64,000 nucleotides of DNA from assembly GCA_025890175.1 (NCBI GenBank), contig JANPYM010000007.1, positions 673,387 through 737,386 of the forward strand, in the 5' to 3' direction. Made by a program: the position numbers and the translations under genes. The notes beneath the pieces are model-generated. The model searched no databases. It saw only the letters and a list, made by a program, of their open reading frames with translations, and had not been told where the DNA came from. Of this stretch, positions 24,838 to 52,526 are shown in pieces (positions within the stretch are counted from its first letter, which is position 1; the number at the start of each line of letters is the position of its first letter). The stretch comes from Ciborinia camelliae (Eukaryota; Ascomycota; Leotiomycetes; Helotiales; Sclerotiniaceae).

Positions 24838-25223
24838 CATCTGTACCCTACCCAGGGTATTTTACTTTTTTGGGTGGTTTATTTTATCTTGTTGGATTCT
24901 ATAAAGTGGTTATTTTATAAAACCTGTAAGTATTTGGAATACTTACGGGTATATATTATGTAATTATTTAATATTATCATCTAAAGTTGAAATTATTTTT
25001 TATTTTTTATTTTTTATTTTTCAAAATATAATTTTAATTTTAATCTTTATTTTCCTTTCATTTTTCAATTCTTTTTTTTTTAAATTTTGAACGATTATAT
25101 TAAATAATTATATGATATATATTTGTGGATATTTTGAATACTTAAAGCATTTTACAAAATGATTATTTTACTTTGCAAAAAAGTAGTAGGGTGGTTAACC
25201 CGCCAGGTTTTACCCCGGGTTAC
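24838..25223. mobile_element. hAT-like MITE-1, left part
   Basis: It starts TAGGGTTGGGCAT. The other end, 52495-52526, reads CAAGATTGGGCAC on the minus strand, so the termini form an inverted repeat differing only by transitions over 12 bp. The insertion is flanked by GCTTTTGT (24830-24837) and GCTTTTGC (52527-52534), an 8-bp duplication with one C-to-T difference, which fits hAT. Both ends carry repeated GGGTA/TACCC words. The arms at about 24840-24980 and 25080-25223 are roughly inverted copies. The reassembled element is about 418 bp with no coding capacity. Confidence 0.7.
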
Positions 25224-25418
25224 TATTATAATGTTAAAGTATTAAGGTTAAAATATAATATATTATTTAAAAAGTTTTTATATTTATAAAGGGTAAAGTT
25301 TTTTATATATATAAAATAAATAGTATAATTGTATGGCTATACAATTTAACAAAAAAAAATATTTAATATTTTAGATTATATTTGAGATTTTAAATATTTA
25401 TTTAAATTTATTGTAACA
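25224..25418. repeat. Left LTR of element E, 195 bp
   Basis: It begins TATTATAATG (a RIPed TGTTATAATG is likely) and ends TTATTGTAACA. It is preceded by TSD GTTAC and more heavily RIPed than its partner at 52295. Confidence 0.75.
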
Positions 25419-26548
25419 AATATTTTTTAAAAAAAACTGTTAGCATTTTTATTAATCAAATTTAAAAGTAATTAATTAATTAAAAAAAAATTAAATATAA
25501 AAACAATTTAGATTATTGTAAAAATCGTTATATCAATTTTATATTTTCAAATAAATTTATTATAATTAAAATTTTTTATATTTTTTTATTTATTATATTT
25601 AGATTTTTATTTTTTATAATAAATTAAATATTGAATAATCTTTTTATTATAATCAAATATTTGTTTATCAAAAAATTATTTAACTTTTTAATAATTTAAA
25701 TTTTGTTTATTGTTAATAATTTTATTATATTAAAAATTATAATATTTATAAAAATCTTTATTAAAATTAATAGATAATTTAAATTGTATAATAGAGAATA
25801 TAAAATAAATTTTTTAATAAATTGAAATATTAAATTAATAAATTAATTAATTAATTTGTTTAATAATATAAAAAAAGTAAATATATTATTAGAATAATTT
25901 TTTATTAAATTGTTTTTATAAAAAAAATATTATATTTTTTATAAAAATATAACAACATTTAATTTCCAATTTTAAAAAATATAAAATAATAAAATCAATT
26001 ATATATTCATTTTATTTTTATATTAATTATATTAATAATATCAAAAACATTAATTTATATAAAAAAAGAAAATTGTTTTAATTAATAATTACTTATAAAA
26101 AAAATTAAAATTAAAATTAAAAATAATTTTATTAAATATAAAATTAATATTGATTTTTGCAAAATTATTAAAAATAATTTAAAACTAAAAATAAAGTTTA
26201 AATTATTTTTATATATTTGTTAATATTAAAATTAAAAATTGAAAAACGATTTTATAAATAATATTAATTTTTTTATTTGTTTTATTAATTTGAAAATAAT
26301 ATATAATATTATAAAAATATTATATATTGATATACAAAAATAATTGTTTTTAAAATATAAATAAAATTTTTTTATTATAATTAAAAATAATTATTTTGAA
26401 TATATCCCAATTTATAAATTAAAATTATTTAATAATTATATTTATTTATTAAATTATAATTCATATAAATTTTTTAGGTATAATTATAATTTTTTTAAAT
26501 ATTTTGTATATAATAATAATATAATAATTCAATTTTTTTGTTAAAATT

Positions 26549-26724
26549 TGTTGAGAGTAGCCAGGGCCGTATGAGCCGTACGGACCGCGAAGCGGCCCGT
26601 AGGCCTAATACGGCTTAGCGCCCTATCTTAAGCTTAAATAGCATACAAGGTTCAACCTTAGTTCTATAGTAATTTCAAATAACATCACACAACTTGCACC
26701 TTCACGTGATCTACCTTTTCAACA
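26549..26724 (+). mobile_element. Solo LTR of Copia-B family, 176 bp, TSD AAATT
   Basis: It begins TGTTGAGAGTAGCC and ends CTTTTCAACA, flanked by AAATT at 26544-26548 and 26725-26729. It keeps normal GC content (CGTACGGACCGCGAAGCGG-type core) and gives the best view of the un-RIPed sequence of the LTRs at 35393, 37114 and 50646. Confidence 0.85.
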
Positions 26725-26729
26725 AAATT

Positions 26730-29700
26730 AATAAAATAAAAATAAAATTTATAATCAAAATATAAAATAATATAAATAAAATATTAATTAATTAAAATGT
26801 ATTATATAAAATATAACAACAAATTTAATAAATATAATATTTAAAACAAAATATTAAAAAGATATATAAATAATAATATAATTTATAAATATAAAAATTA
26901 TAAAAAATATAATTATAAATTTATATAAATTCTAAATATTCTATAATATTATATTTTATTTATAAAATGTTTTTAATTATATTAATTAATATATATAATC
27001 AAAAAATATTATTATTATATTAAATAAAATTATTTTTGAAATAAAAATTAAATTAAATTATATTATCATTTAATTTTACATTTCTTTTTAATTACAAAAT
27101 TATTATACAAAATATTTTATCTTTTTTATATTTTTGTATTAATTAATTTCAAAAATCTATAATAAATTTAATTAAAATAATAGTATATTAATATTTAATA
27201 ATATAATTAAAATTTAATTTTAAAAACAAAAATAAATAGTCTTTATTAAATAATTAAAAAAAAGTATTTAATCTGATATACTTTTTATCAAACTTATAAA
27301 AAAAAAAAAAAATCAAATTATTATAAATATATATTAATATATATAAAAACAAAATTCAAATAATTCATACTTTTAATTTATAAAATTCTTTAATAAATAA
27401 TATGAATAATAATTTTATAATTTGTAAAAATATAAAAAAAGGAAAAAGTTAATTTAATTAAATAATAAACTTTTTGTATTACCCAAATAATACCTAATAT
27501 TTTAAATTTTATAATTTATAGTTTTTTGTTTTGCTAAATATAGTATATAATTAAAAAACAAAATTAATTAAATATTCGTTTTTTTGGATTAATTCCATTT
27601 ATGAACAATAATTTTATTCTATATATAATAAATTATAATATTAATATTAAATTTAAAAAACAATTGATATTAATATAAAAAATATAATTAATAAAATTTG
27701 TATATACCAAAATATTAAATTATAACAATTTATTTTTAATTATATTAAAAAATTGTTTTTTGTTAAAAATAAAAAAATTGTTTTTATTTATTATAATAAA
27801 TTAATAAATATAATATAAAAAAAAATATATTAATAAAATTATTCAATTAATTTAATAAAATGTTTAAACTAAATTAAAAAAATTAAATAATTTAGATTAA
27901 AAATAATTTTTATTTTATTTACAATAATTATTATATTGAAATTATTTAAATATTAATTAAATAAATATATAAATAAAAAAACAAAATAATATTTAAATAA
28001 TTTTAATAAAATATATTAAAAAAATATTAAAAATAAAATAAATATTTTTTAAAATTATAAAATTAAATAATAATATTATTAATATATTTTTAAACAAAAT
28101 TTTAAAAGAAATAAAGCAATTAATCAATTTATTGTTATATAAAAAAAATAAAGTTTTTAAATCCTATAACAATAATATTAAATTATTTTTATTTATAATA
28201 AAAAATAATAATAAATTTCAAACAATTTTTTATAATTATAAATTATTAATAAAGAAAAAATATAATTTATAATAAAAATAAATTTTATATTTATAATTAA
28301 GTTTAATATATTTTATTAAATCAAAATAAAATAAATATTAATAATAACTTTTTAATTAAAATTTTATAAATTAATAATTATTTGTTTTTTAAAAAAATGT
28401 TTTTATTTAATTATAAATTATATAATAACAAAAACAAAAGTTTCAAATAATATAATTTTTTTAATTTAAAATATATAATTTATTTTATAAAATAAATTGA
28501 ATATTTAATTAATTATATTATATTAATAAATATTAATAAAATATATATATTATTTTTTATATTAAAAACAATTCTGTTATTTATTTTAAAATAAAATAAT
28601 TATTTATTTATTTTTTGAAATATTTATAGTTATATTTGTATTATAAAAAATATTATTGAATTTTTGAAGAAAGTTAATTAGATTTTTTGTTTAACAAAAA
28701 ATTTTAATATTATAAATAATAATATTATTTTTAAATTTGATTTTTCGGTTAGTGTTTGATTTAAAATCGAAAAACTTAATATTTTGTTTAAATAAAATAA
28801 ATTTAATAAAAGTGTTTAAATTTTATATAATTTTTTTATAAAATATGTTAGATAAAATAAATATTTTATTATTTATTATATAAATTTTATTAAGTTATTA
28901 ATTATAAGGTATTGTAATAGGGTAATTAAAATTATTTCAAATTATAATTTTTTGGATATAAAAATTAAGAATATATAAGAATAAGAATAAAGATTATTGT
29001 TATTTAAAATTAAAAAGTATATTATAATTTTTATTTTAAATAAATTAAATTATTAAGTAAAAAATGTTATATATGGATATAAATATTATAATAATAATGA
29101 ATATAAAATAAAATTATTGAAACGTTTTTTGGATATAAATATTTATTAGAATATTGATTTAATAGATATTAATTTAAAATAATTTTTTAAAATAATTAAT
29201 TTAATATTATTTTAAAATTAAAATATTTATATTGATAAACAAATTAATTTTAAATTTTTTTATAAAATAAAATTTGCAAATAATTTTAATTTATTTAAAT
29301 TTTTTAATTTTGATATTTGTTTTGGGAATATATAAATCAAAAATAATATATTAATTAGTTATATAATAATTATTAATTATATTTTATATTATAAATAATT
29401 TTGTTATTATATAAATTTTTTGTTTTAATAATTTTTATAAAAAAAATTTGAAATTGATATATAAGGAAGTATATTTAAAGTTTTAATAAATAAAGATTGT
29501 TTTATTAATATTTATAAATTGTATATAAACTTTTATATAAAAAGATTTTTAATAATTAAATTTAATGTTAATTTTAATAATCAAAATATTGAATTAAGTA
29601 ATTAAAAAAATCTTCTTAATAATTATAATATATATAAAAAAAAATTAAAAAAAAAGTCAAAAACATTTTTTTTGATTTTAAAAAAATAATTATTTTATTC

Positions 29701-31583
29701 AAAATAGTAAAAGAGATTATTATTAATTGAAAATATAATTGTATATATTTTGTATATATAATAAGTTAAAATTGTAAATGGCATAAAATTGTTAATGTAA
29801 TAATTAAATTTATAATTTTTAATTTTATTATTATTTAAAATAATATTATTAATTTATTAATAATATTTATTTTATTTTTAATGTTTTTTAATTAAATTAT
29901 TTATTTTATTGTTTTTAATATATATATAATTATTATTAAATTTTTTTTGAATTATTGTTTTATTTAAATTAAAAGAGGATTAATTTGTTTATTTAAAAAA
30001 TAATTAATTAAAGTTTTGTTTTATAAAAAAATTTTAAAGTTATTATTGTTAAAAAGTTTATAAATAAGTATATATATTATTAATAAATATATTTTTTTTG
30101 TTTGGATTTGTAATAAGTAATGTATATTATATAAATAACGTTATAAAGAAATTAATAAATTGAAAAGAATTTAAATAAAATCTAAATCGAAAAATATAAA
30201 AAATTTTAAATTTATAAAATATTAACGATTTATTTTAAAATTGAAAAAATGAATGTTTTTTTAAAAAATAAATTGGTAAAATATTAATATATTAAATTTT
30301 AATGTTATTTTGTATTTATCTTATATTGTTTATAATTTGTTTTATATAAAAGTTTGGAAATGTAGGATTTTGCAGGAAATATATATTAAATTAATTATTT
30401 TAATATTATTACAAAAATAATATAAATAATTTAATAATATTTTTTTTTTTTTTGGTTTTAAAATATTAAAGTATAATGAAAAGTTAATATATTATTAAGT
30501 TTTTAGAAAAATATATTATATATTTATAATTTAAATATTTTTAATATTAATTTATAATGTATTAAAATTTTTAGAAAATTTTTATTATTATTAATAATTT
30601 TAAATAGAATATTTAATATTATAAAATTTATTAAATATTTAAATAATAAATAGTTTAAAACATTTTTGAAAATAAATTTAAATTTTTTTTTAATATTTTG
30701 TTTATAATATAATTAAAATGTATATTAATTAATAATTTGTTATTTTATTAAATAAACATTTTATTAAAAAAAGAATTATTAATAATATTATAAATATTTA
30801 TTTATTTATTAAAATTAAATAATATAATAATTTATTAACAAAAAATATATATATTGCGAAAAATTATTTTACTATTATATTTAAAAATTTCCTTTTTTGG
30901 TTAATCCAAAAAGAAATTTAAATAAAAATAATTTAATTTAAAAAATTTAATTTTTTATTTATTTATATTAAAATTTGTAATTTGAAAAAAAATTATAAAT
31001 TGTATAAGATTATTATTAAATAAAACTATTTATATTGAAATTATTATTTTTAAAAAAAATATAATAAATTTATCAATATTTAAAAAAAAAAAATCTAATT
31101 CTTTATATATTAAAATCCAATCTTTTATAACAATACAAAAAACTTTTTTTCATTTATTAATTTAATTAATATTATAAATAAAAATGATTGTATCTAAAAT
31201 AAAATAAAGATTAATAAACTTTTAAAATTCAAAATAAAAATTATCGATAATAAATTATTATATATAAAATAAATTTCAATTATGAAATAATAAAAACTAA
31301 TATATAAATTAAATATACAAAAAAAAAATATTAAAAATGTTAAATAAAGATTTTATATTAAAAATAAAAATATAAAAAAAAGAAAATTTATATATTTAAA
31401 ATATAAAAAAAAAAAAATTTGTATTTTTGTTTTATATAAGTTTAATTTAAAATATTTTGTATATTTATAAAATAAATAAAAATATCGAAAACTTTTTAAA
31501 AAAATCTTTTTTTAATATAAAAGAAATAAAAAGTTTGTTTTTTTTTGATTTGTTCTAATTTTTTATTTAGGATTTGTTATTAT
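26730..31583. other. RIPed DNA, probably internal region of element E
   Basis: Extremely AT-rich with no coding signal I can assign. Its position between the left LTR of E and element A suggests degraded gag-pol of E, which is inference from layout only. Confidence 0.5.
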
Positions 31584-31588
31584 ATATT

Positions 31589-31811
31589 TGTTGTGACAGG
31601 GGTCACCCCTATCAGTTACGTAACCCTATTACGTAATTTCGTCTGCGCACACGTTGGCGCGGGCTAGGCGCGGCATGTATTTATATTAGGATACTTTTAT
31701 TTGTACTTTTTTAACTAGAATATTATTAATATTATAACAAATTTTATATTTATTATTGCTGATTATTTTATTATTATATATATATATTTATTATCCTAAA
31801 ATAAACCAATA
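31589..31811 (+). mobile_element. LTR (family A), 223 bp, left LTR of element A
   Basis: It begins TGTTGTGACAGGGGTCACC and ends ATAAACCAATA. It is homologous to the minus-strand solo LTR at 9061-9256. It is preceded by ATATT (31584-31588), and ATATT also follows the family-A end at 52293, so 31589-52293 may be one element of about 5 kb before later insertions. Confidence 0.65.
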
Positions 31812-33739
31812 TTAATTAATGAATTTTATAAATTAGAAATTTAGATTATAATTAGAAAAAGTTCAATTTTATTATTATAAAACATTATTAACATTTATAC
31901 GTAAACGATTTAATTAAATGCTAATAAACATTTTTTATAAAATTAAAAAAAATTCAAAAGATTTTAAGTTTTAACTATTTTGATACAAAAAGTATTATCA
32001 ATATTAAATATATCATTATAATTTAAATATACCATTCTCAACACAATATTATTTATTAAAAATTAAATTTTACATCTATTACATTTTAACTCGAATTAAA
32101 CAAAAATTATCATACCTTTTTTATTTACTTATTTATTTATATTTTTGAATATAATATAATTATTATAATTTTTTTCAAAAAAAATCGCAAACAAAATTTA
32201 TACATTTTTATTTTTATACTTTTTATTGATTTTTTATTAAAATCTAATTCTTTTAAAACATTTTACAAAAATCTATTATCTTTATATCTTTTATTTACTA
32301 TAAATTTAAATACCTTATTTTTCAATTTTATTTTATTTAATATTTACTTAAAACTTTTTGTAATTTCAAAAACTATTATATATAAACTTTATAAAAATAT
32401 TAAACAATTCGAATACTATAAATCCCCATTTAAAATAATTTATAATTATCTAATTATAATATACAAATTTCAAATTTTTATATTTTTTTTCGTTAAAACC
32501 TTATATTTTACTTTTTGTTAATTTACTCAATCAATAATAATTTTTTTATAAATTTAATCCAAAAAATTAACAAATCCTAAAATCTTAAAATTAATCAATA
32601 AATTTAAATCATTATTAATTCTTATAATCCCCAATTTATTTTTATTAAAACTAACTTCAAGATTTTTCATTAAAATAATTTTTAATATTCTAAAGAAATA
32701 CAAATTTAATAAATTACTTTTTAAAAACAAATTTAATTTATTAAAAACTTTTATATAAAATATTTAAAAAAAAAAATTTTTTAAACAAATTTAATATCAA
32801 AAAAAAAAGATTTATTAATATTAATTTTTTATATATTTTTAAAAACAATTTCAAATTATTTAATTTTAATATTTTTAAAAAAATTAATAAAATTAATTTA
32901 AACTATATACATATAAAATTTTAATATAACAAAATATATATTGATTTAAATATTAAAGCTTTTATTATTTTATTCAAATTATTATAATAAAAAAAATTTA
33001 TTAATTAAATTATAAAACAATTTTAATAAACAATTTATAAAGAAAAAAAAGTTTTGATTTTAAAAAATCAATTACTTTTTATATTTATATATTTTTATAT
33101 TTTTTATTCGCGTTTTTTTTATTTATTAATTAAATTTGAAATTATTAATTATTAATAAATTTTCCAAATTTTTTTTAAAACCAAAAAAAAATTCAATATA
33201 AACTTTTTTTAATTATTTATTTAATTTTAAATTATTTTTTGTATTAACAAAATTACATCAAAATTTGAATTATAATTATATTTGGAAATTTTAATTTAAA
33301 ATAAAGTATTTATAATTAATTAAAGAAATTTTAAAATTTACTTTATAATCATATTTTGTACAATCCCTAACCCCATAATTAATTATAATATTATAATATA
33401 TAAATATATTATGATTTATAAAAATCGATTTACATTAATATATAAATTTTTTGTTTTATAATATAAATTAATATAAAATAAATTTTATTAATAATATAAT
33501 ATTTTAAAAAAATATTTATATTTAATTTTTTTTTTTGGTTTTAAATAGATTTAACAAAATCAATTTTACTTTAAATAATAAAATTTTTTATTATTTATTT
33601 ATTAAAAATAATTTTTATTAAATTATAATTTATTATTTAATATTATTTTTTATAGAAATTGAAATTAATTATATAATTATATTTTATTATTTTATAATTT
33701 ATATATTGTTTAATTTTATAATATATTTACAATCTTATC

Positions 33740-33946
33740 TATTGAGGAATCAGGTCAGATAGTTTCCGGTCACATGATCAGGGATCACGTGGTAAGCTAT
33801 ACCGCATAGGGTATGGGGGAGTAGCATATAAGGGCAGCTGGGCTGCCACCAAATACATACTCCTTAGTCAAACCAATCTACTATAATTCTATCCTAGTAC
33901 TTCCTTCCTACCGTATTACTGGTCATCCCAGGATATACGATTAATA
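33740..33946. mobile_element. Solo LTR (family F), 207 bp, TSD TTATC
   Basis: It begins TATTGAGGAATCAGG and ends ACGATTAATA, flanked by TTATC at 33735-33739 and 33947-33951. It has near-normal base composition with TATA-like GCATATAAGG in the middle. It is a better-preserved relative of 12859-13066. Confidence 0.8.
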
Positions 33947-34543
33947 TTATCTTTATTTTTTTTAATTATATTATTTTTTTATTATATTATTTATCTAATT
34001 AAAAAACTAATATTTTAATATCAAAAATATTATAATTATATAATTAATATAAATAAATTATATTTTAATAATATAAAATATTTTAAAACAAATATTAATA
34101 ATTTTATTTACAAATATATAATTTTTATTAATATTTATAAATATTTATAAATTTCTATAATTAATAATTATAAATATTTTTGATTATATTAAAAAAATTA
34201 ATTTTAAATTATTATTATTATAATATTATTAAATTATTTATTATTTTTAATGTAATGTATATTTATATAATTATATATTTTGAAAATAAAAATTATTAAT
34301 AATTTATTTAAAATTAGTAATACAAAATAATATTATAATTAATTAAAAAATAATAATTAAATAAAATTTATAATAAATTTTTTAAATTTTTTTTTTATTA
34401 AATTAAAAGTTTTGTTTTATAAATTATTTTTGAATTTTTAAAATAAAATGTTTTTTTAAATTAAATTGTTTAATATTTATTGTATTATTAAGTTATATAA
34501 AATTGTATATATTTTTTTTATATTAAATTTTAATTTTTTTTAA

Positions 34544-36254
34544 TTAAATTTATAATTAAATATTATTAATTAAAAACAAATTAATAAGGGAATAAAACAA
34601 TTTTTTATAAATAAATGTTTTTATTATAATAAAAATTAATTATTATATAAAAATTTTAATAATTGTTTTTAATTATTTTTTTATAGATAATAATAGATAT
34701 ATAATAATTTGTAATATAAATTTTAATTATATTTTTGGTATAAAGATTTTAATATTTTTTATTTTGTTTGTTTAAAAAAAAATTATTATTTAAAAAATTA
34801 TTTAATTATAAAATAATGAAAAATCAAAAAAGATTATAAAAATTAAAAACGCAAAATCGTTTATTATATTATTATTATTAATATAATTAATAATTATATA
34901 AAACAAATTTGATTTAAGATTTTCGTTTAGAATATAAATATTAATATTATTATTATACAAAATTTATAGAAAAACCTTTTAGTTTTAATTTATATCAATT
35001 TTTTATTAATTTTTATTATTTAAACAAAATTTGTTAATTCAAAAAGAATTTATCCAATAATTTATAAAAATAATTTTTTTATATTTTATATAATTTAATA
35101 TAATATTATTTAATATATTTTTTAATTTTAAATAATATAATAAAAATTAATTTTATAATATTATAATTAATTTAAAAATATCAAAATATTTTATTATAAA
35201 GTTATAATAATTTTTGATTTTTTAAAAAATTTGTAATATTAAGTTTAATTAAAATATTATAAAAAATATAAATATTATATTTAGAATTAATTTTATTATA
35301 TTTATAAATTTTGTAATATTATTTCTATTAATTAATATAATCGAATTTTATATTATATTAATTAATATATTATTTTTTTTATTATTAATAAATGTTGAGA
35401 GTAGCCAGGGCCGTATAAGCCGTACGGACCGCGAAGCGGGCTGTAGGCTTAATACAGCTTAGCGCCCTATCTTAAGCTTAAATAGTATACAAAGTTCAAT
35501 TTTAATTTTATAATAATTTCAAATATATTATATAATTTATATTTTTATATAATTTATTTAATTTCAATAAATTATAAATCCGGATATATTAAATTGATAG
35601 ATAAGTTTTTGATTATTTTGATTTACTTATTTTATTTTATATTTTTTTTGTATTTTTATAGGATAAACAAAAGATTTAAAGTATTAAGCAAAAGAATATC
35701 GAATATAATAATAAAAAATTGATACTCAAAATATTGTAAAAAATTAATATTTATAAAAAAAAAATAATAAATCGAAAAGATTAATTTTTATAATTAAATT
35801 TTTTTCAAATTTATTTATAAATTCTATAACAATAATATTATATTTAAAAAAATTATAGAAAATCATAAAGTTTTTTATTATTAAGATTAAAAGCAATATT
35901 AAAAAAAAATAGGATAAAAAACCCAATTTACTTTTAGATTAATTTTAGGAAAAAAATATTTTTTATAATATTATATTAAGATTAAAAGGTTTAATATTTT
36001 GATTATTTTTTTTTATATAAAAAGATTTATTATTAACATAATAAAATTTATTAGTATTTAATATAGCTTTAAATTCTAATTTGGAAATTGTTATAATTTT
36101 TAATAATCTAATATTTTTATATAAGTTTTATTTTAAGAGAATAAAGAATTATAATATATAATTTAAAAATATTATAAATATTATTAAAATAAATGGTATA
36201 TTTAATTATTTTCAAATTTTAAAATTTATTAATTTTTATAATAAAACAAATAAT
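34544..36254. repeat. Left copy of 1.7-kb assembly duplication
   Basis: Identical to 36265-37977 except for two extra T residues in one homopolymer (near 35652 against 37373-37379). The copies abut the 10-N gap on either side. This is the pattern expected when two contig ends that overlap are scaffolded instead of merged. It contains a spurious extra copy (35393-35569) of the Copia-B left LTR. Confidence 0.9.
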
Positions 36255-36264
36255 NNNNNNNNNN
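36255..36264. other. Assembly gap of 10 N
   Basis: The only ambiguous bases in the window. The flanking duplication suggests a negative-size gap (overlap) rather than missing sequence. Confidence 1.
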
Positions 36265-39679: not shown

Positions 39680-40250
39680 TTATTAATATTGATGAATATA
39701 AATATATAATTTTGTTTATTAATAATAATATTTATAAATGAATTATATTTATTTATAAAAAAAAAGGTGAGATTAAAAAGGCTATTTATATTATAAACAA
39801 ATAAATATTTATATAATATAAAATAATAATTTTAATATAAAAATTTAATAGGGATAATAAATATAAATAATATAAATTTAATTAAATAATTAAGGATTTA
39901 GGGTTTTATTTTAAATTTATGATTTTTTATATTTTAAATTAAAATAAAATATTTAAATATTTTATTTGTATAGTTCTTGATAAAGTATAATCTATTTTTA
40001 TTAAAATAATGGTTTTATATATTCTTTAATTAAAGATTTTTTGGGGTATAATTTATATTATAAATTAAATTATAATTTAATTTTTATTTAATAAAATTAT
40101 TTTATATAAAATTTATATAAATTATATTTATTTTAATATAAATAATTAATCAAATATTTTTTATTTATAAATATTTAATAATATTATTTATATTTATATT
40201 TTAAGGGAATATTATATTATAAACAAAAAGTTTGCTTTTCGGATTAAAAA
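39680..40250 (+). pseudogene. Copia-B integrase remains
   Basis: Translation starting near 39689 gives a degraded rve integrase pattern: IDEYKYIILFINNN, then YKKKGEIKKAIYIIN, then downstream a VLDKV-SIFIK...KIFWGIIYIIN stretch. This corresponds to the GYKY...FIDD, KKKSE...F and ER...SGLPKxLWGE regions of Copia integrases. Several codons for Asp, Gln and Trp have become Asn or stop through G-to-A or C-to-T. Recognition is by pattern only. Confidence 0.55.
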
Positions 40251-43200
40251 AAATATTCTTATTAATTTTAAAAAAAATTATATTTATTGAATATTTATTT
40301 TTATTTATATAATTAATAAAATTATTTATTTTTTTAATATTTGTTTTAATAAAATAAATTTTTTAATTAATTTAATTAATAATAATAATAATTTAGATAA
40401 ATATTAAAATAGAAAGGAATTGGATAATAATTTAATATTTTTAAATAATTTTATTTATATTTAATTAAATAAATTAATTATTAATATTAAAAATTATTTA
40501 AATATTATAAATAATTATATATTATTTAATTATAAGGATTAATTTAATTAAATTGATATTAATAAAATATTAAAATTCAATTAAAAATATAATCAAAAAT
40601 ATTTTAAAAATTTAAAAAATAAAAAAATTATTAATAAAGAAATAAATAATATAATAATACAAATATTATAATAATATTATATTATTATTTATATAATTTA
40701 TATAATAATAATAATTAATATTAAAAATAATTTTAAAATATTTAATAAAATTATAAAATTATTTAATAAAGTTAAATAAATAAAATTAATTAAAATTAAA
40801 TATAAATCGATTTTTAATAACAAAACTTTTAAATTTGTTTAAAAATTAAAAATTTAAAAATAAAAGATTTTTTGTAATAAAATGGTTTATAAACAAAAAC
40901 GAAATAAAAAAAATAATATTAAAAAATATAAAATTTATTAAATTATATAAAATTTTAAATAATATTATAAATTAAATTTTAATCAAATTTTTGTAAAAGT
41001 TTATAAAAACATTTTTTGAAAAATAATTTTAATAATTATTATTTATTTTAAATTAGAAATATATCAAATAAATATAATTATAATATTTCTGAATATTATT
41101 ATATTAAACAATTTGTTAATTTATATTAAATTATTATTATATTGAAAATAAAATAAAGTATAATTTAAATAATTAAAAAAAAAATTTTAAAAATAAGATT
41201 TGAATATATTAATTACTTAAAGTTTTATATAATTTAAAATAAATATTAAAATAATAATAAAAAATTTTATATTTTATATTTATTTAATTTAATTTTATAT
41301 TAATAAAAACAAATAATTATATTTATCTTAATTATAATAAAAAAACAATAATAATAATATATATTAATAATTTTTTTATAATTGAAAAAATAAATATATA
41401 TAATATATTAAAAAAAAATTTAGCAAAAAAGTTTTAAATAAAAAATTTGAAAACAATTTTATATTTTTTAAAAATTCAAATTTATTATAATTTACAAAAT
41501 AGAATAATTATTTTTTATTAAAATTTTTATATTAAAAATTTTTTTACAAAATTCGATTTCAAATATTTGCAAATAAATATAATATCTATAATATTAGATT
41601 TTATTAAAAATTTGATTTTAAATAAAAAAATAGTTGATAAACAATTTATAGTATTTTATTAATTCAAAATTGGATTTTTAAAATTTTTATATATTAAAGC
41701 GAATATCATATATAATATAGGTATTCTTTATCGATTTCTTATTAATTCTTTAGAAATATATATAAAATATTGCGACCGGATCTTTTGATATTTGGTTGAT
41801 ATAATAAACTATATAATTGTTTATGTTATATTTTAATTAAATATATAATACCTATCTCTTAATTAATTATATAATTTATTTATTTAATTAAATATATTAA
41901 TTAATTGATTAAATAATTAATAAATTATATATTTATTTAATTATACAGGGTATAATTAAATGTACGATATAGTAGTACGAACTACGCGAACACGTGCCTA
42001 GTATGATCATTCGAATTGTACAGGGTTTTTTTAAAATTCGAAACGCTGTATTAGGAAAGGTCGATTTTTTGTTCGAATTTTAGTTAAAAAAAGCAATATA
42101 GTGGGGCATTTTTATTTCGATTTTAATTTTTAATTTTGTATTGTAATAATATTATTTTATATATTATATATAAATATATAATATAATTATTATTATTTTT
42201 TAATATTTAATTTATTTATAATAAAAAATATATATTAATTAATTAGATACCCTATACCATCAACATATATTTTTTGTATATACCTAAAATTCGAATTTGT
42301 AATAGGTTATATAGTCTGATATTGATATATATACATTAAATTCGAAAAATCGATTTTAATAGGTTGATTCTATCGAACTAATATTATAAATCAATTAAAT
42401 CATAATTGCACATTTTATTTTTATCGAAAATATTTTTAAAACGAATTAAAATCTATTTAATCAAATTAATTGGAATTATAATCCCTACTATTAAATGCGA
42501 TTTCGAAATATATTTTGAATTAAGCCCCAAATCTGAATTTAATTATTTAATCAGAATTTTGATTTAAATTTCGATTTTGTTTGATATTAAAAATAATATA
42601 TTAGGGGAACCCAATTTTGAAGGGATTATATGATACGCTAGAATTGCATTTAATAGGCTGATTCGTTATCAAAATTTAACAATCATTTTGATAGACTTAA
42701 TTAATTTTAATAAATCTATAAATTATATCGATCTTTATATTATATATAATATTAATATCAATCTTTTATGTATATCAGGAATCTTGTATATATATATATA
42801 ATAGGGATTTTATTTATATATATATAGTATTAGTATATTTATATATATATATATGAATTTTTGATTTATAGTTAATTAATTATTTATAGTATTTATTTAT
42901 TTTTAAGGTTTTTAATTGAATTTTTGATTTATTTTATTAAGTTTTAATTGAATTATAATTTAAATTTAATTTAATTATAAATACTAAATCTTGAAGTTTA
43001 TGTCCTTAAGATTAAATTTAATTGAATATATAAAATTAAATTTTTAAACGTTATATCTGTATGATTATATCATCTATAACGAATGGTATAATATTATATC
43101 TCATATTAAGGTGCCCTAGCTTAATTTTATATTAAAAGGTGGCTGGTTTAGTATTAAAATTGTATTATATTAGTATTATATTAGTATTAAATTAATATTA

Positions 43201-43555
43201 TATTAATATTTTATATTTATAATATTAATCTAATATTAATATTAATATTATATTATATTAGTATTTCGTTTAATGCGCATTTCAATATAATTAGTACCCT
43301 GCTTTATATTTTAATATAATTCAAAAATATTTAAAAATATAATTAAAAATATTAAAAATATTAGAAATATAATTTAAAAATATTGAAAATATTAAAAATA
43401 ATAATAAAAAATATTCGTATTTTTTGAATTTTTGAATTAATATTATACAAAAGTTTTTGAATTAATTATTTTTTTGAATTTATTAAGTAAAATATTTATA
43501 AAACTTAAATAAAAATATTATTAAAATTAAAATTTTATATTTATATTTATATTAG

Positions 43556-43588
<33 letters not shown>

Positions 43589-43689
43589 TGTATTTTATAT
43601 AAATATATTTAAAAATTCGAAAAATTTAAATTTATATATATATATATTTATAATAAATCAAAAACTTTTATAATAAAAATAAATTTAGG

Positions 43690-46160
43690 AGTTTGTTTTA
43701 CTAATAAATTTTTAGCGGGGCATTTTAATTATATAGAGTGGGTTTATAAAGCTAAGCTTTTTTTAAAGATAAATAAGTTTATATCCTATATTAATAATTC
43801 CAAACTAAATTCTAATAAAAATTATTATTTTAATAATGGAGAAATATTTAAATCTAATAATTTATTAATAAAATTTGAAGATAAAAAAAAAGAATTTAAT
43901 AAAAATTCTAAAAAAACTTTAGGAATTATTAAATTAATTATAAATATTAATTTAATAAATTGATTTAAAAATCAATCGAATTTTATAAAATTATAAAATT
44001 TAATTGAAAATCTTTTTAATGAATTATTATTAAATTTAATTAAATAATATTTTAATAAATTAATAAATTCCAATTATAATAATTTTAAAAATATTAATAA
44101 ATTTTTAAATCATATTATATTATTATATTTATTTTTAAAAAAGTTAAATTATAAAATTTATAAATTTATTATAATTTGAATAATATTTAATAGATTAAAT
44201 AATTCGTTTAATTCATTTAAATCAAAAAAAATAAAAAAATTATTAGTTTAATTAAAATTAAATTTTTTTAATATTAATTTAAATAAACTTAATTTAGATC
44301 TAATATCTAAAAAGATTAGATTAAAAAGAATTTAAAATAATTATTTAATTAATAAAATAATTAAACCCTAAAATATTATACCAAATTGTATATTTTATAA
44401 TAAAAAAAAACATTTAAAATTTAAATACTTTAAAAAATACCTTAAACTATATAAACCTAATTATTATAAAAATAAAAGGGCTAATTTTTTAAATTCTAAT
44501 AATAAAATTTATAAAAACTTAAAAATAAATTAAAATATTAAAAAAGTTTTAAAAAATTCAAATTCTAATATAAGTTTTAATTAAATTAATAAAATTAATA
44601 ATAAAAATAATAATAAATTTAATAATAAATTTAATAATAAAAATAAAAATAATAAAAATAATAAAAATAATAATAAAAATAATTAAAATAATCAAAAATC
44701 AAAGGATTTTGAATTAATTAATAAAATCTTTTCAAATATTGAAGATTTTGAATTATACATTAATTTTAATAATATATATATTATAAACCTATTAATTAAT
44801 TCATTAAAATCAAAATCTAAAAATAATATTATATTAGATTTAGGAGCTATTGAACATTATTATCATAATAGAAATTAGTTAATTAATTTTAAAATACCTG
44901 AAAATTCATTTTTATATATTATTATAATTGTAGGGAATCAAATTTTTATTAAAAGATAAAGGGATATACCTATTATTTTAAATAATAATTGAAAAATATT
45001 AATTTAAGGGGTTAAATATATATTTGATTTAAATTTTATATTAATTAATACCTAAAAAATTATTATTTTAAAGTGGATTAATATAGTAAAACCCTTTAAT
45101 ATTAAAATCGATTTTATAAATTATAAATTAAATATTTATACTATTACAATTTGGATCAAATATATTTTCTTTTTAAATTACATTATTAATTTTAAATTTA
45201 TAAATAAATATAAAAATAAAAATAAATCAATTAAAATAATTAATCAAATTAAATTTAATAAAAAATTAAATATCTTAGATTTATAGTATAGATGTTTAAA
45301 ATATATTAATAAAAATTATATATTTAAATCAATATCATTAAATAATAATAATTTAAAATTAAATTTTAATCTTTATTTATTATATTTATATGCAAAAATA
45401 TATTAAAATATAAATATAAATTTATTAATAATATTTAAAAATAAATTCGATATAATTAATATCGATATATATAGTTCATTTAAGCTTAATTTAAAAAATA
45501 AAAGGTATTTTATAACGATTTTTAATTGGTATATAAAAGCTATATAGGTATACTTTATTAAATTTAAATCTAATATATTTAATATTTTAATTAATTTCTA
45601 TAATTTAATTAATAATTAATTTAATATTAAATTAAAATAAATTAGGATTAATAATATATTAAAATTTAAATCAAATAAATAGGATTTATTTATAAAAGAT
45701 CAAGGTATTATAATGAAATATATAAGTCCATATACGTATTTTCAAAATAGAATAACTAAACAATTAAATCGAATTTTATTTGAAATATTAATTAATTATA
45801 TAATTGATTTAAAAATCCCTGTTTTTCTATAACTTTATTTAATTAAAAATATTAATTTTATTAAAAATCGTATTTATAATTGCATAATTAATACTACTCT
45901 ATATACACATATATTTAATAAAAAACCTAATTTAAATTATATTAAAATATTAGGTTTATTAATATTTATATTTAAATATAAAGAGCAAAGAAATGAAAAA
46001 TTAGAATTTAAAGCTAAAAAGGGTATATTAATAAATTTTGAATCCTTGCAAAACTTTATATTTTATATACCAAATCCAAGGATTTTATTATATATAAAAA
46101 TCGATTATATTATAATAAAAATAAAAATAATAAATATATTAAAAAATTTAATTTTAATTA
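43690..46160 (+). pseudogene. Copia-C gag, protease and integrase remains
   Basis: The gag N-terminus is suggested by a NYIEWVYKAKLFLKI-like pattern near 43730, followed by an Asn/Lys-rich tail with AAT repeats (44590-44700). Protease is seen near 44836 as ILDLGAIEHYY, where the usual DSGA has become DLGA. The GAG-pre-integrase motif is near 45290. The integrase core runs from about 45500 (a YFITIxNWYxKAxWVYF-like stretch) through SPYTYFQNR near 45730 to a KNRIYN...KKPN region at 45860-45930. Stops are frequent and mostly TAA or TAG in place of CAA, CAG or TGG. Confidence 0.7.
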
Positions 46161-46194
46161 TAATAAGATTATTAATTATAATCAATTAAAATTA

Positions 46195-46480
46195 AATTTA
46201 AATAATAATAATAATAATTTAAATCAAAATAATATTCAAAATAATGATTTAAATTATAATTATAATCAAAATAATAATAATTTAAATCAAAATAATATTC
46301 AAAATAATAATTTAAATTATAATTATAATCAAAATAATAATAATTTAAATCAAAATAATATTTAAAATAATAATTTAAATTATAATTATAATTAAAATAA
46401 TAATAATTTAAATCAAAATAATATTCAAAATAATAATCTAAATTATAATTATAATCAAAATAATAATTATAATCGAAATA
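46195..46480 (+). repeat. Four 63-bp tandem repeats encoding an Asn-rich 21-residue unit
   Basis: Copies of the TTTAAATC landmark begin at 46218, 46281, 46344 and 46407, a period of exactly 63 bp (21 codons). The unit encodes mainly Asn with Leu, Gln, Ile and Tyr. It lies between the integrase and RT domains of Copia-C. Copies differ by single transitions. Confidence 0.9.
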
Positions 46481-46779
46481 ATAATTTAAATTAAAATAAT
46501 AATTTAAATCAAAATAATTTTAATAATTCAAATTAAGGGGATTTAAATAAATCATTTTTTATAATTGAAATACTATATAATTCTAATCTACTTATTCCAA
46601 TTAGCAATCTAAGCGATTAAGAGAGGTATCATCTGAAATTAATTTATATTATCTTGTATATATAGCTTATATTAAATTATTAAATAATTAAGGTTTAAAA
46701 TTTAAAATTAATAAATACAATTAAAATAAAATCTTATTAAATTTTAGTATTAAAAATCAAAATAATAAAATTATAATTA

Positions 46780-48790
46780 AAAAATCTAATAATAATTTAA
46801 TTAATTTTAAAATGTATTTAAAAGCTATTAATTTAAAAAAAAAGGAATATTAAAATAAAATTATAAAATATAAAATTAAAATTTTTAAAAATAATAATAT
46901 ATAAGAATTAATTAATAATTTTGATATTACTAAAATAAAATCTTTTAAAATTAAATAGGTATATAAAATTAAAAATCTATTAAATAATTATATTGAATTT
47001 AAAGTTAAATTTATAGTTAAAAAATTCAAACAATTATATAGATTAAATTATTTAAATACATTTGCTAGTGTTATAAAGCAAATGGTTTGGAAATTAGTAT
47101 TCATATTAACTATTAATAAATTCTGATATATATATAAAATCGATATAATATTAGTATTTGTATAAAGGGATATCAATACAGATTTATATATAATGCTATT
47201 TGAGATTTATAATATAAATAAAAATAATACAAATATTATTTTAAAATTAAATAAAACATTATATAAATTAAAACAATCTGTTAAAATATAATATTTAACT
47301 TTAAAAAATATATTATATAATTTAAATTTTATTTTTTTAATATTCGATAAATATATATTTATAAATAAAACTTTAAATTTAATTTTAAATATATATATTA
47401 ATAATATTGCGATTATAAGTTTTAATAAAACTTTAATTAAAGATTTTATAAATAATTTAAAAAATCATTTAAATTTAAAAAATCTAGACCCTATACAAAA
47501 TTATTTGGGTATTAATATTAAAAAAAATAATGATTATATTGAATTAAATCAAGAAAATTATATTAATAAATGTTTAATTAATTTAAATTTAAATAATTCT
47601 AATTTTATTGATATCTTTATAATATCTAAAAATAATATTAAAATAAATTACGAAAAAGCAAATAAATCTGATATTAAATAAGCCCAAAAAACGATTGGAA
47701 AGTTTTTATATTTAGTTTTAGGCATTAAATAGGATATCACCTTTGCAGTGATTAAATTAGTTCGATTCGTTTCGAATTTTAGTATCAATTATATAATTAC
47801 GATTAAAAGGGTATTTAGATATTTAAAAATTATTAAATTATTAAATATTAAATATAGTAAAGATTCTAATAATTATATATAAAGATATTGCAATACTAAT
47901 TATATAAAGAATTTAAATATTGTAAAATCAATTAATAGATATATATTTATATATATTAATAATCTAATTAATTGGAAAACTAAATTATAATCAATAATAA
48001 CTCAAAATTCAGCTGAATTAAAGCTAATTATGTTAGGGTGTGGATTTACTGGGTAGATCCTGATCCCATTTGATAGGGTTTATATAGTAGAACAACTATT
48101 CCAGAACAATTTGGAATATTTTATGTTTTTGTGGTGCAGTGGTAAAGTTGTTTACTTTTGATATTGTATTTCAGATTAATTGGTCGGTATGTTTTGAGAT
48201 CAGTTTTTGGCGAGGATATATTATTTTGAATCTTTTAGATTAATTTATTAATTTAATTGGTTTAGTTGCAATTATAAATGTTTTCTATTTTTGTTGTGTG
48301 GGCTTATTTTTGTTTTGAACTAGGGGGTTCAAGTTAAGACGGGGGTGAGTGTTAGGGTGTGGATTCATTGGGTGGATCTATTGGTTCCACAGAGTGGGGC
48401 TCTGACAGGGTTCATATAGTAGAACAACTATTCCAGAATAATCTGGAATACTCTACGCTTTTGTGGTGCAGTGGTAAAGTTGTTCACTCCTGACAAATTA
48501 CAATTAATTTAGTAATAAAAAAAACAATATACCTTTAAAAAATATTAATTAAATTAAATCAATATAATCAAAATAAATTTTTTATATATTCAGATAATAA
48601 AATTACTATAAATATATTTAGGAACTTTATATTTTATAATAAAAACAAATATATATCTATATACTATTATTATATTAAGGATTTAATTAATAAAGGCCTA
48701 ATTGATTTAAATTGGATTTCCTCTTCAAATTAATTAGTAGATAGTTTAATTAAACCATTAGATAAAATAAAATTATTCAAATTAATTGAT
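46780..48790 (+). pseudogene. Copia-C reverse transcriptase and RNase H remains, split by TRIM
   Basis: RT is clear from 46990 (FKQLYRLNYLNTFASVIKQM) through LYKLKQS near 47265. The catalytic YVDD box appears as YINN near 47395, explained by G-to-A changes. QNYLGINI follows near 47500 and a GKFLYLVLGIK-DITFAV segment near 47700. RNase H begins near 47880 and is cut at 48030 after NSAELKLI. It resumes after the TRIM at 48501 and ends near 48788 after LVDSLIKPLDKIKL. Confidence 0.8.
48031..48495 (+). mobile_element. TRIM element D, 465 bp, TSD AATTA
   Basis: The LTRs are 48031-48163 (133 bp) and 48350-48495 (146 bp). They share TGTTAGGGTGTGGATT... and a TTTTGTGGTGCAGTGG... tail and differ by a 13-bp indel plus transitions. 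The internal part is only 186 bp and ends in the purine tract GACGGGGGTGAG before the right LTR. The flanks are AATTA at 48026-48030 and 48496-48500. There is no coding capacity, which defines a terminal-repeat retrotransposon in miniature. The left LTR is RIPed (TTTTGATA) while the right is intact (TCCTGACA). Confidence 0.85.
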
Positions 48791-48799
48791 TTAATTTAA

Positions 48800-48802
48800 C
48801 AA

Positions 48803-48845
<43 letters not shown>

Positions 48846-49455
48846 TATATTAATAAAATTAATTGAATTAATTTTATTAATTCAATTATTAAAAATTAGT
48901 ATTAAAAAGAATAAAATCAAAAGATTTTATTCTAAAAAATATTAATTTTAAAAATAAAATTGATATCTATATATGCTATATATATATATTTGTATTTTAT
49001 TTTATTTCATCTTTATAAATTTATTTAAAAAAATATATATATATATATAAATAAATATATATTAATGAAATTAATTGAATTAATTTTATTAATTCAATTA
49101 TTAAAAATTAGTATTAAAAAGAATAAAATCAAAAGATTTTATTCTAAAAAATATTAATTTTAAAAATAAAATTGATATCTATATATGCTATATATACATA
49201 TTCGTATTTTATTTTATTTCATTTTTATAAATTTATTTAAAAAATATATATATATATAAATGAATATATATATTAATGAAATTAATTGAATTAATTTTAT
49301 TAATTCAATTATTAAATTAGTATTAAAAAGAATAAAAATCAAAAGATTCTTATTTTAAAAAATATTAATTTTAAAAATAAAATCGATATCTATATATGCT
49401 ATATATACGTATTAGTATTTTATCTTATTTCATTTTTATAAATTCATTTAAAATA
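48800..49455 (+). repeat. Three tandem copies of a unit of about 212 bp in Copia-C 3' region
   Basis: The landmark GATATCTATATATGC occurs near 48962, 49173 and 49384 (spacing 211-212). Each unit starts with an AT dinucleotide run and contains GAATTAATTTTATTAATTC-type palindromic sequence. The array lies between the pol end and the purine tract of Copia-C. Confidence 0.85.
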
Positions 49456-49995
49456 TTTATTTAATTTTATTTTATCTTATTTTTTCAAAAGAAAGCTATT
49501 AAGGGGGCGTGTTGTATTTTAATTAAATATATAATATCTATCTCTTAATTAATTATATAATTTATTTATTTAATTAAATATATTAATTAATTGATTAAAT
49601 AATTAATAAATTATATATTTATTTAATTATACAGGGTATAATTAAATGTACTGTATGGTAGTACGAACTACGCGAACACGTACCTAGTACAATCATTCGA
49701 ATCGTACGGGGTTCTTTCAGAATTCGAAACGCCGCATTAGGAAAGGTCGATTCTTTGTTCGAATTTTAGTTGGAAAAAGCAATATAGTGGGGCATTTTCA
49801 TTTCGATTCTGATTTTTGATTTTGTACCGCAATAATACTATTTTATATATTGTATATAAATATATAATATAACTATTATTATCTCTTGATATTTAATCTA
49901 TTTATAGTGAAAAGTGCGTATTAACCAACTAGACACCCTGCACCACCGGCATATACCCCCTGTATATGCCTAAAATTCGAACTTGCAACAGTTTA

Positions 49996-50520
49996 TAATA
50001 ATAATAATAATAGATTTGTTATAAAAGAATATACAGATTTTGATTATATAGAAGATTTTTTAATAAGAAAAAATATATCAAACTATGTTTTTTTTATATA
50101 TAGAGGAATAATCTCGATACAATTAAAAAGATAATCAATTATAATCTTAAATTCAATAAAATCGAAATATTATAAATTTTGTAAGGCAACAATAAAAGTA
50201 TTGTGAATTCGACAATTTTTAGGAAAATTAACAAAAATTGAATATAAATATCCCGATTTAACAAAGATTAAAATTATTAAAAATAATTAGGGGAATCTTG
50301 TTTTTACTAAAAATCTAAAAATTTATTAGTATATAAAATATATAATAATAAAGTATTATTATATCCATAAACAAATTATATAGGGCTATGTTGATCTATA
50401 ATTCGTATTAATAGATTTACAAATGGCAAACGGATTTATAAAACTGTTTTTATTAATAAAATATATTAGATTTGTTGAAATATTGTAAATAAAAAAACTT
50501 TTGAAAAAAAGAAAAATTTA
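49996..50520 (+). pseudogene. Copia-B RNase H, downstream part
   Basis: From 50022 the plus strand reads EYTDFDYIEDFLIRKNISNYVFF and later LNSIKSKYY, IRQFLGKLTK and a DLQMANGF...LLIKYIRF end. This is the Copia RNase H pattern with D-to-N and Q-to-stop RIP changes. Removing Copia-C and one TSD joins it in frame to 41690-41823 (...IINYIIVY). It is followed 126 bp later by the Copia-B right LTR. Confidence 0.75.
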
Positions 50521-50827
50521 TTTTCTAAAAATACAAAATGTACATATTAATAATAACAAAATATATTAATAAAAAATAAAAAATATTAATTTAAAAAAAC
50601 TAACAAAAGCTTTAGAACATTTTATATATTACTAACTAAAAGATATATTAAGAGTAGTTAGGGCTGTATAAGCTATATAAACCGCAAAACGGGTTGTAGA
50701 CTTAATACAGCTTAGCGCCCTATCTTAAGCTTAAATAGTATACAAGGTTTAACCTTAATTTTACAGTAATTTCAAATATATCACACAACTTGCACCTTTA
50801 TGTGATCTACCTAATTTCAACAATAAA

Positions 50828-52198
50828 TATAAATAAATTTTAAATTTATTATAATAATATTATGAATTAATTAATTAAAAAAAATAATTTTAAACTAATT
50901 TATTCGATATTTTATAAATTTAATTATACTTTTTTATATTAAAAAAATATTTTTGATTTATTTATATAAATATATTATTTAATTAAATTTAAATTATATT
51001 AATTATATTATTATTTTAATTATTTATTAATTTATAGGTTTAATAAAATCTTTGAATATATAGGATATAATATCGATTTTTAAATTTTTAAAAAAATTAA
51101 TAAATTTTGTTATTAATATTAAATTTATAATAATATTTTAAACAAATTTAAATTTAATATTTGTAATTAAATTAAATTTAATTATTTTATATATATTAAT
51201 ATTATATATTTGGATAATAAATTTATTTTTTATATTATTAATAAAAAAATTGATTATTAAATAACAAAATTTTTTATTAATATTTTTGTAAAATATATTT
51301 AAAATATTTTAAAATATTTTTAAATTGATATATATATTAATTTTTTTAATAATATTATTTATAATATAAAAATATAATTTATTATTTAAAAATTTATTTA
51401 TAATATTATTTTTATAATTATTATAACAAAAATTATATTAATTAAAGTTTATTAATTTATTGGTTTTATAAAATATTATTATAAATTATTTTGTAGGATA
51501 TAAAAAATTATTAATAATAAAATAGATAATATATTATTACAAAATATAAAATTATAAATAATTATTAAGGTTATTAATAATATTATTGATTTAAATAAAT
51601 TAATATTTATATTTTTGGTATATAATATATTTTTGAAAATAATAATTATAAATATATTTGTTTTTAATATTATTTAATATATTAAAATAATTTATAAAGT
51701 AATAAAAAAAGTTTTATATATTTATATTAAAAAATAAATTAATAATATATTTAATTAATATAATAATTTTAATATATTATTTATTTATAATTTATTATTT
51801 AATTTTAAGATTATAATTTATAAAAAAGCAAATTTAATAGTTTGTAATAAATAAATTGAATTATATTAATTTATTAGTATTAAGGATATTATATATATAG
51901 TTGAATTATTTTAAGGATTAATTTATTTTTGTATAATTTAGATTTAATTATATTATAAAAAGTTAATTAAAATATTATTAGATCTCTAACATACATATTT
52001 TAAAACACTGAATTAATTAAGCGACAGCTGGGAATACATAAAGCTGATTATATATATTATTAATTGTTTAAATTTATAGGGCTCTACAAGCTGTACAGCA
52101 CAAGCAATAAGGGAAATCGTAAAGAGCCATAGCCAATAATAATAGCTGAGTTTATGGCGAAGGCTATTATTATTGATCAGCCCAAACGGCCGTACTCA
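50828..52198. other. RIPed DNA plus short GC island with hairpins
   Basis: No gene seen. From about 51985 composition becomes more normal. The palindrome GCTGTACAGC lies at 52090-52099, and a 13-bp perfect hairpin pairs 52134-52146 with 52163-52175. These belong to the upstream part of the right-hand family-A LTR-like unit. Confidence 0.5.
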
Positions 52199-52293
52199 AG
52201 CTCGTTATTAATACTATAACAAGTTTTATATCTATTGTTACTAATTATTCTATTATTATATATATGTGTTTATCACCCTAAGATGAACCAATA
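52199..52293 (+). repeat. 3' part of a family-A LTR
   Basis: Matches the last 95 bp of the LTRs at 31589-31811 and 9061-9256 (minus): AACAAGTTTTATA, then TATGTGTTTATCACCCT, then ATGAACCAATA. It ends one base before the right LTR of element E. Its upstream half is unrelated to the other copies. Confidence 0.7.
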
Positions 52294-52294
52294 A

Positions 52295-52489
52295 TATTAT
52301 AATATTAAAACATTGAGATTGAAATATAATATATTATTTGAAAAGCTTTTATATTTATAAAAAGCGAAGTTTTTTATATATATAAGGTAGATAGTATAGT
52401 TGTACAGCTATACGATTTAGCAAGGAAAGATACCTAATATTTTAGGCTACGTCTGAGATCTTAGGCACTCATCTAAATCTACTGTAGCA
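52295..52489. repeat. Right LTR of element E, 195 bp
   Basis: Better-preserved partner of 25224-25418, ending CTACTGTAGCA and followed by TSD GTTAC (52490-52494). Confidence 0.75.
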
Positions 52490-52494
52490 GTTAC

Positions 52495-52526
52495 CCCGGG
52501 TATACCCTACCCTGTGCCCAATCTTG
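52495..52526. mobile_element. hAT-like MITE-1, right end
   Basis: The 32-bp right terminus of the MITE whose left part is 24838-25223. It ends at GCCCAATCTTG and is followed by the 8-bp duplication GCTTTTGC (52527-52534). Confidence 0.65.

What the first reader, a model, noticed from the sequence alone, without database searches (positions are those of the whole stretch)
24838..52526. Six-level transposon nest splitting one JmjC gene, decodable from target-site duplications
Each layer has its own matched ends: MITE-1 (8-bp GCTTTTGT/GCTTTTGC), element E (GTTAC), probably element A (ATATT), Copia-B (ATAAA), Copia-C (GTTTA) and TRIM-D (AATTA). The insertion order therefore follows directly: gene, MITE-1, E, A, Copia-B, Copia-C, TRIM. 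The JmjC frame reads continuously across the outermost junction (VTDKQK joined to QTELARF), which is independent proof that fragments 27.7 kb apart were one gene. This gives a relative clock for RIP and transposition waves at one locus.
Basis: partly seen in the sequence, partly recalled or inferred. Interest (0 to 1): 0.92.

Follow-up and report, generated by a model that had tools for sequence, protein, structure and literature searches.

The report
Six transposons nested in one gene
In the camellia flower blight fungus, six mobile elements landed one inside another within what looks like a single gene; their order can be checked against uninterrupted copies elsewhere in the same genome, but their ages cannot be read because nearly all differences look like the work of the fungus's own repeat-mutating defence.

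Summary
The nest is real. The window is from Ciborinia camelliae. Five of six target-site duplications are exact; MITE-1's is 7 of 8. MITE-1 in the gene has no such copy.

Corrections: MITE-1 starts at 24828, not 24838. A 10-N gap (36255-36264) lies between two copies of about 1.71 kb without mismatch, most likely an assembly overlap, so the insert is about 26.0 kb. Missed: two solo LTRs, a second MITE in the gene, and a 2.1-kb loss in A filled by another repeat. "JmjC" found no database support.

The clock fails: five LTR pairs differ by 157 transitions and 1 transversion, so divergence records RIP-like mutation, not time.

Unexpected: in 21 LTR pairs of three families this mutation fades towards the outer ends of the elements, which may be why junctions stay legible. 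Nested RIP-mutated clusters are already known.

The parts
53341..53450 (-). Gene piece 1 (N-terminal side), beyond MITE-2
   Evidence: (match 53340-53450)
52915..53340 (.). MITE-2, hAT-like, in the same gene; duplication GTGATATC 52907-52914 / ATGACATC 53341-53348 (6 of 8)
52527..52914 (-). Gene piece 2
24245..24819 (-). Gene piece 3 (C-terminal side)
24828..52526 (.). MITE-1 with everything inside it: left arm 24828-25223, right arm 52495-52526; duplication 24820-24827 / 52527-52534
25224..52489 (+). LTR element E (orientation inferred); LTRs 25224-25418 and 52295-52489; duplication GTTAC
26549..26724 (+). Solo LTR S1 of B's family inside E; duplication AAATT
31589..52293 (+). LTR element A; left LTR 31589-31811, remnant of right LTR 52203-52293; duplication ATATT
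33740..33946 (+). Solo LTR S2 inside A; duplication TTATC
51984..52202 (.). Repeat X standing in place of about 2.1 kb of A (ends approximate)
36255..36264 (.). 10-N assembly gap; 34544-36254 and 36265-37978 are the same sequence
37114..50822 (+). LTR element B; LTRs 37114-37290 (also seen at 35393-35569 before the gap) and 50646-50822; duplication ATAAA
41824..49990 (+). Copia element C; LTRs 41824-42304 and 49510-49990; duplication GTTTA
48031..48495 (+). TRIM, 465 bp, LTRs about 48031-48165 and 48351-48495; duplication AATTA

Best explanation
A gene on the minus strand, found once in the genome, was split by two hAT-like MITEs (MITE-2 at 52915-53340, MITE-1 at 24828-52526). Into MITE-1 went, one inside the other, LTR element E, LTR element A, LTR element B, Copia element C and a TRIM. 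Side insertions are a solo LTR of B's family in E and another solo LTR in A; A also lost about 2.1 kb at its right end, where a short repeat X stands. RIP-like C-to-T mutation drove the inner parts of the elements to about 5-15% G+C but touched the outer ends of the elements and the short solo LTRs much less, so the junctions stay legible. Shown: junctions, order, transition-only change between LTRs, fading towards element ends. Inferred: that the mutation is RIP proper, that E and B move like ordinary LTR elements, and that the repeat at the gap is an assembly overlap. The gene's likeness to JmjC is recalled, not shown.
For: Two-letter (purine/pyrimidine) dot plot and base-level views. Uninterrupted copies: E in MITE-1 at 10 distinct places among the 12 best of 29 loci; A in E in 4 of 22 loci; B in A in 8 of 8 copies fetched (with a wrong right half the scores drop from 214-232 to 157-163); C in B in 7 of 7 and TRIM in C in 7 of 7 copies fetched. 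Frame continuous across MITE-1; the frames with few stops are in phase across TRIM in C and across C in B. C carries RVT_2, E 8.5e-29. 157 transitions and 1 transversion over 1,039 LTR bases. Gap: 0 mismatches and 3 indel bases in 1,714 columns; a second such case on C12, 0 mismatches in 1,722 columns.
Against: No uninterrupted copy of the gene was found in this genome, so MITE-1 in the gene rests on a 7-of-8 duplication, terminal repeats and phase. E, A and B gave no Pfam domain in the frames tried. The scaffold crosses a 10-N gap inside the nest. A's right LTR is incomplete. In one search, 18 of 22 E-LTR loci do not share the sequence beside the LTR. In one search an out-of-phase frame of B scored as well against C as the in-phase one.
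Confidence: 0.95

Rival explanations
1. Scaffolding error: the two halves of the nest were joined wrongly at the 10-N gap.
For: There is a 10-N gap at 36255-36264 with matching flanks of about 1.71 kb.
Against: The overlap includes the junction between A and B; the halves of MITE-1, E and A lie on opposite sides of the gap and fit each other in duplications and in uninterrupted copies; the gene pieces were found nowhere else.
Confidence: 0.03
2. The repeat at the gap is a real, very recent tandem duplication.
For: Both copies are in the assembly.
Against: One copy ends at the gap and the other begins after it, without a mismatch; the same pattern recurs on C12. It is not universal: two other 10-N gaps (in L013 and L064) showed no such copies, and L022 had too little flank to tell.
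Confidence: 0.05
3. A is not one element: its left LTR and the 91-bp right piece come from two insertions whose ATATT flanks match by chance.
For: The first 132 bp of the right LTR are missing and another repeat stands there; chance of the match 0.006.
Against: Four E copies read straight through at exactly this site with one ATATT.
Confidence: 0.03
4. The mutations are not RIP but another C-to-T process, such as deamination before integration or slow deamination of methylated DNA.
For: The CpA preference is weak: mutated share CA 0.56, CT 0.50, CC 0.43, CG 0.39.
Against: Both strands are hit (C>T 281, G>A 155 in nine C pairs). The two LTRs of one element differ, so the changes came after integration. 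The short solo LTRs S1 and S2 are at 46% and 43% G+C inside elements at 5-9%.
Confidence: 0.12

Closest known systems
Nested transposon clusters of Mycosphaerella graminicola (PMC4522978; abstract and passages seen)
   Same: Elements inserted in one another, RIP-type transitions; a 47-kb cluster with a 5-bp duplication is drawn, 78 putative clusters counted; the authors note that RIP may make LTR ages too old.
   Different: Here the base is a MITE inside a gene, and five junctions are checked against uninterrupted copies.
crapaud LTR retrotransposon of Podospora (PMC10787394; passages seen)
   Same: RIP in LTRs of full copies, few or no RIP mutations in most solo or fragment LTRs.
   Different: The passages seen do not describe a fall of RIP along each LTR towards the element's end; the rest of the paper was not read.
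RIP in Neurospora crassa (PMC4858203; passages seen)
   Different: Here mutation falls off before the end of the element, and the CpA preference is weak.

Membership tests
Nested transposon cluster | Inner element flanked by a duplication, host element continuous across the site in other copies | tested here: met
   Duplications; uninterrupted copies for five of six junctions; none found for MITE-1 in the gene
Ty1/copia (element C) | Copia reverse transcriptase domain | tested here: met
   RVT_2, E 8.5e-29
Ty1/copia (element B) | Copia reverse transcriptase or RNase H domain | tested here: inconclusive
   No Pfam hit. Against C's translation two of three frames before C beat all 100 shuffles, and one frame after C beat all but 1 of 300; RNase H by eye only
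LTR superfamily of E and A | Recognisable pol domains | tested here: inconclusive
   No Pfam hit in E (six frames of 26730-31583) or in the frames of A tried
TRIM | Under 1 kb, short LTRs, 5-bp duplication, several copies | tested here: met
   465 bp, LTRs about 135 and 145 bp, AATTA; 43 matches in the genome, its own included
hAT-like MITE (MITE-1, MITE-2) | 8-bp duplication, terminal inverted repeats, short, many copies | tested here: met
   Duplications 7 of 8 and 6 of 8; ends; 66 and 81 matches, own included. That these features mark hAT is recalled
hAT-like MITE (MITE-1, MITE-2) | Moved by a hAT transposase | not tested
   No autonomous partner was sought
JmjC-domain protein | Significant match to the JmjC family or a known member | tested here: not met
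   No match; single-sequence models with pLDDT 36.5 and 38.2 say nothing
RIP | Transitions in repeats with almost no transversions | tested here: met
   944 transitions, 7 transversions in 21 LTR pairs (sum over)
RIP | CpA preference | tested here: inconclusive
   CA 0.56, CT 0.50, CC 0.43, CG 0.39
RIP | Mutation in the sexual cycle by the RIP machinery | not testable with these tools
   Needs a cross or a gene removal; the machinery's genes were not looked for

The most novel reading that the evidence does not exclude
RIP-like mutation in this fungus fades from the interior of an LTR element to its outer end and leaves the outermost stretch almost unmutated, as if a cytosine needed homology on both sides. 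In families C and E the 5' LTR is also hit much harder than the 3' LTR, beyond what distance explains; in B it is not. If general, element ends and duplications survive RIP by rule, and nests in AT-rich fungal DNA could be decoded in bulk.
Probability: 0.7. Interest if true: 0.5.

Novelty: new member of a known kind. Interest (0 to 1): 0.38.

Why it matters
It shows that a deep transposon nest in DNA of about 7% G+C can be checked layer by layer from copies within one genome, and that LTR divergence in such DNA must not be used as a clock. The fading of mutation towards element ends, if it holds genome-wide, would be a natural read-out of how RIP recognises homology.

Tried and rejected
JmjC identity: Pfam, PDB (22), two protein searches and two single-sequence models (40, 44) gave nothing. 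Pol domains of E, A and B: no Pfam hit (41-43). tRNA-like TRIM: ARAGORN found no tRNA in the window (47). A general 5'-over-3' bias of RIP: strong in C (391 to 45) and E (100 to 32) but not in B (160 to 216), so not general. RIP before or after insertion from host flanks: the window's share of unmutated sites ranks 2 of 8 (TRIM site), 1 of 8 (C site), 6 of 9 (B site) and 2 of 5 (A site), inconclusive. Fading in the TRIM pair: weak. Empty sites in other isolates or species were not sought: the tool says this genome has no relatives there. Papers on the host (PMC7060139, PMC10512376; passages seen) and on RIP across fungi (PMC12543289; passages seen) added nothing used here. Literature searches; two searches listed no paper, but the way 5' is printed may defeat, so I make no claim that the fading is absent from print.
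Full report
WHERE. The helicase ORF at 13888-16650 matches NHQ30_005935 of Ciborinia camelliae at 100% over 89% of the query; lineage. The window is C25:673387-737386 of 46.2 Mb in 27 contigs.

STRUCTURE. C-to-T and G-to-A changes keep purine/pyrimidine class, so I compared the window with itself in that two-letter code. The LTR pairs stand out at about 100% agreement where base identity is 77-88%. Base-level views give the ends. Outermost first: MITE-1 24828-52526; E 25224-52489, LTRs 25224-25418 and 52295-52489; A 31589-52293, left LTR 31589-31811 and only the last 91 bp of the right LTR, 52203-52293; B 37114-50822, LTRs 37114-37290 (also 35393-35569 before the gap) and 50646-50822; C 41824-49990, LTRs 41824-42304 and 49510-49990; TRIM 48031-48495. 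Each has its duplication.

EVIDENCE FROM COPIES. If a layer is real, other copies of the host element should run straight across the site with one copy of the duplication. E in MITE-1: the 12 best of 29 loci were printed and span the junction; they are 10 distinct places, because L052/L053 and L057/L059 overlap. A in E: 4 of 22 E-LTR loci span it at 0.97-0.99 two-letter agreement; the other 18 do not share the sequence beside the LTR. Five of the 27 loci L008-L034 were left out beforehand: L013, L026, L029 and L030 as another repeat or partial, L015 as the window's own LTR. B in A: 8 of 8, fetched from 12 matches of 85% or more that begin at the site; all show one extra base at the junction because I began the right half one base late, and L099 one further gap; a control with a wrong right half scored 157-163 against 214-232. 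C in B: 7 of 7, fetched from 13 matches that begin at the site, one with a 3-base gap in a TAA run. TRIM in C: 7 of 7 without gaps, fetched from 13 matches of full or nearly full length. The copies fetched were those on the plus strand, for convenience. MITE-1 in the gene has no such test, since no second copy of the gene was found.

THE GENE. A search with the joined reading finds three places in the genome at E<=0.01, all in the window and in order: 24248-24847, 52519-52920 and 53340-53450. The frame is continuous across MITE-1 and, by my arithmetic on the coordinates, across MITE-2. The joined reading between the MITEs and the end of piece 3 has three internal stops. Its JmjC look (an HID motif, PPG, GG) is recalled, not shown. 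Phase at one junction is 1 in 3 by chance.

OTHER FRAMES. The frames with few stops before and after the TRIM, and before and after C, are in phase. Against this, an out-of-phase frame of B upstream of C scored as well against C as the in-phase one.

Solo LTR S1 26549-26724 (B family, AAATT) in E; solo LTR S2 33740-33946 (TTATC) in A; MITE-2 52915-53340. Two other A copies, L107 and L108, carry nearly 2 kb more before a complete right LTR; against them the window copy lacks about 2.1 kb, and repeat X (about 51984-52202) stands there. X has eight other matches among the 40 listed, five of which were compared.

ASSEMBLY GAP. Ten N at 36255-36264. 34544-36254 and 36265-37978 are the same sequence with 0 mismatches and 3 indel bases. 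On C12 another 10-N gap has flanks alike over 1,722 columns, 0 mismatches, 3 gap bases. L013 and L064 hold 10-N gaps without such copies; L022 had only 102 bases on one side; L077 and L078 hold longer N runs at an end. The overlap includes the A-B junction, so the join is very probably right and one copy surplus. Insert length is then 27,699 - 1,721 = 25,978.

NO CLOCK. Over 1,039 aligned LTR bases in five pairs there are 157 transitions and 1 transversion; gapped parts of the TRIM LTRs and the missing part of A's right LTR are not in this count. Divergence therefore reflects RIP-type mutation. Internal G+C is 35% for the whole TRIM, 10-11% in C, 7-15% in B, 5-9% in A and 6-7% in E, roughly in line with order, but family and copy number confound it. 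The host-flank test was inconclusive.

MUTATION FADES OUTWARD. The two LTRs of an element are identical at insertion (established knowledge), so differences between them are later. In nine C pairs (window plus eight) the mutated share of C/G in the 5' LTR is 0.06 in the outermost 60 bases and 0.51-0.67 in the innermost 120; in the 3' LTR it is 0.20 in the innermost 60 bases and 0.00 in the outermost. In nine B pairs, by 30-base steps from the interior: 5' LTR 69/85, 40/61, 20/64, 10/98, 15/188, 6/133; 3' LTR 80/142, 73/179, 35/98, 18/66, 7/63, 3/81. Three E pairs show the same, the one TRIM pair only weakly. Totals in the 21 B, C and E pairs: 944 transitions, 7 transversions (sum over). The 5' LTR is hit harder in C (8 of 9 pairs, 1 tie) and E (3 of 3), but in B in only 4 of 9. 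In a regression with distance, the 5' side still adds to the odds in C and E; B's single pair there did too, but nine B pairs did not bear it out. Limits: C pairs come from 40 scored of 91 candidates of a search with the window's 3' LTR, B pairs, so they are no random sample; sites within a pair are not independent; E's orientation is inferred; one C pair spans 15 kb and one 3.9 kb.

SOLO LTRs. Of 23 E LTRs measured, 14 lie at 0.446-0.462 G+C and 9 at 0.108-0.325; the four that adjoin E's interior (L008-L011) and the window's left LTR (L015) are in the low group. That the high group are solo LTRs is inferred, not tested. S1 and S2 are at 46% and 43% inside elements at 5-9%. This fits what is reported for crapaud in Podospora.

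KNOWN OR NEW. Nested RIP-mutated clusters with 5-bp duplications are published. This nest is a well-checked new example; the fading of mutation towards element ends is the part worth following.

Noticed in passing
window 36255-36264; genome C12 near 2407164: 10-N gaps flanked by about 1.7 kb of identical sequence, probably unmerged contig overlaps that would inflate repeat counts.
   Followed up: yes
window 1379-8070: Possible further LTR element: 1379-1504 matches 7881-8006 and 1850-1923 matches 7997-8070 at two-letter agreement 0.99-1.00.
   Followed up: no
window 9061-9256 (-): Solo LTR of A's family with ATTTT on both sides.
   Followed up: partly
window 12858-13051: Partner of solo LTR S2, 194 bp at two-letter agreement 0.99.
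   Followed up: no
window 13888-16650 and 55144-56421: Two related DNA2/NAM7-type helicase genes on the same strand on either side of the nest (NHQ30_005935 and NHQ30_005940).
   Followed up: partly
genome C25:307666-328573: Apparently another B element with a C element inside it, at a different site.
   Followed up: no
window 22990-23230: Foldback repeat, arms 22990-23076 and 23144-23230.
   Followed up: no
window 18376-18643 and 61106-61667: Tandem repeats in stretches with open reading frames.
   Followed up: no
window 48821-49460: Three tandem copies of a 212-bp unit just before the right LTR of C.
   Followed up: no
window 48031-48495: The TRIM LTR holds TGGTAAAGTTG, which fits the tRNA box A pattern as I recall it; ARAGORN finds no tRNA.
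   Followed up: partly
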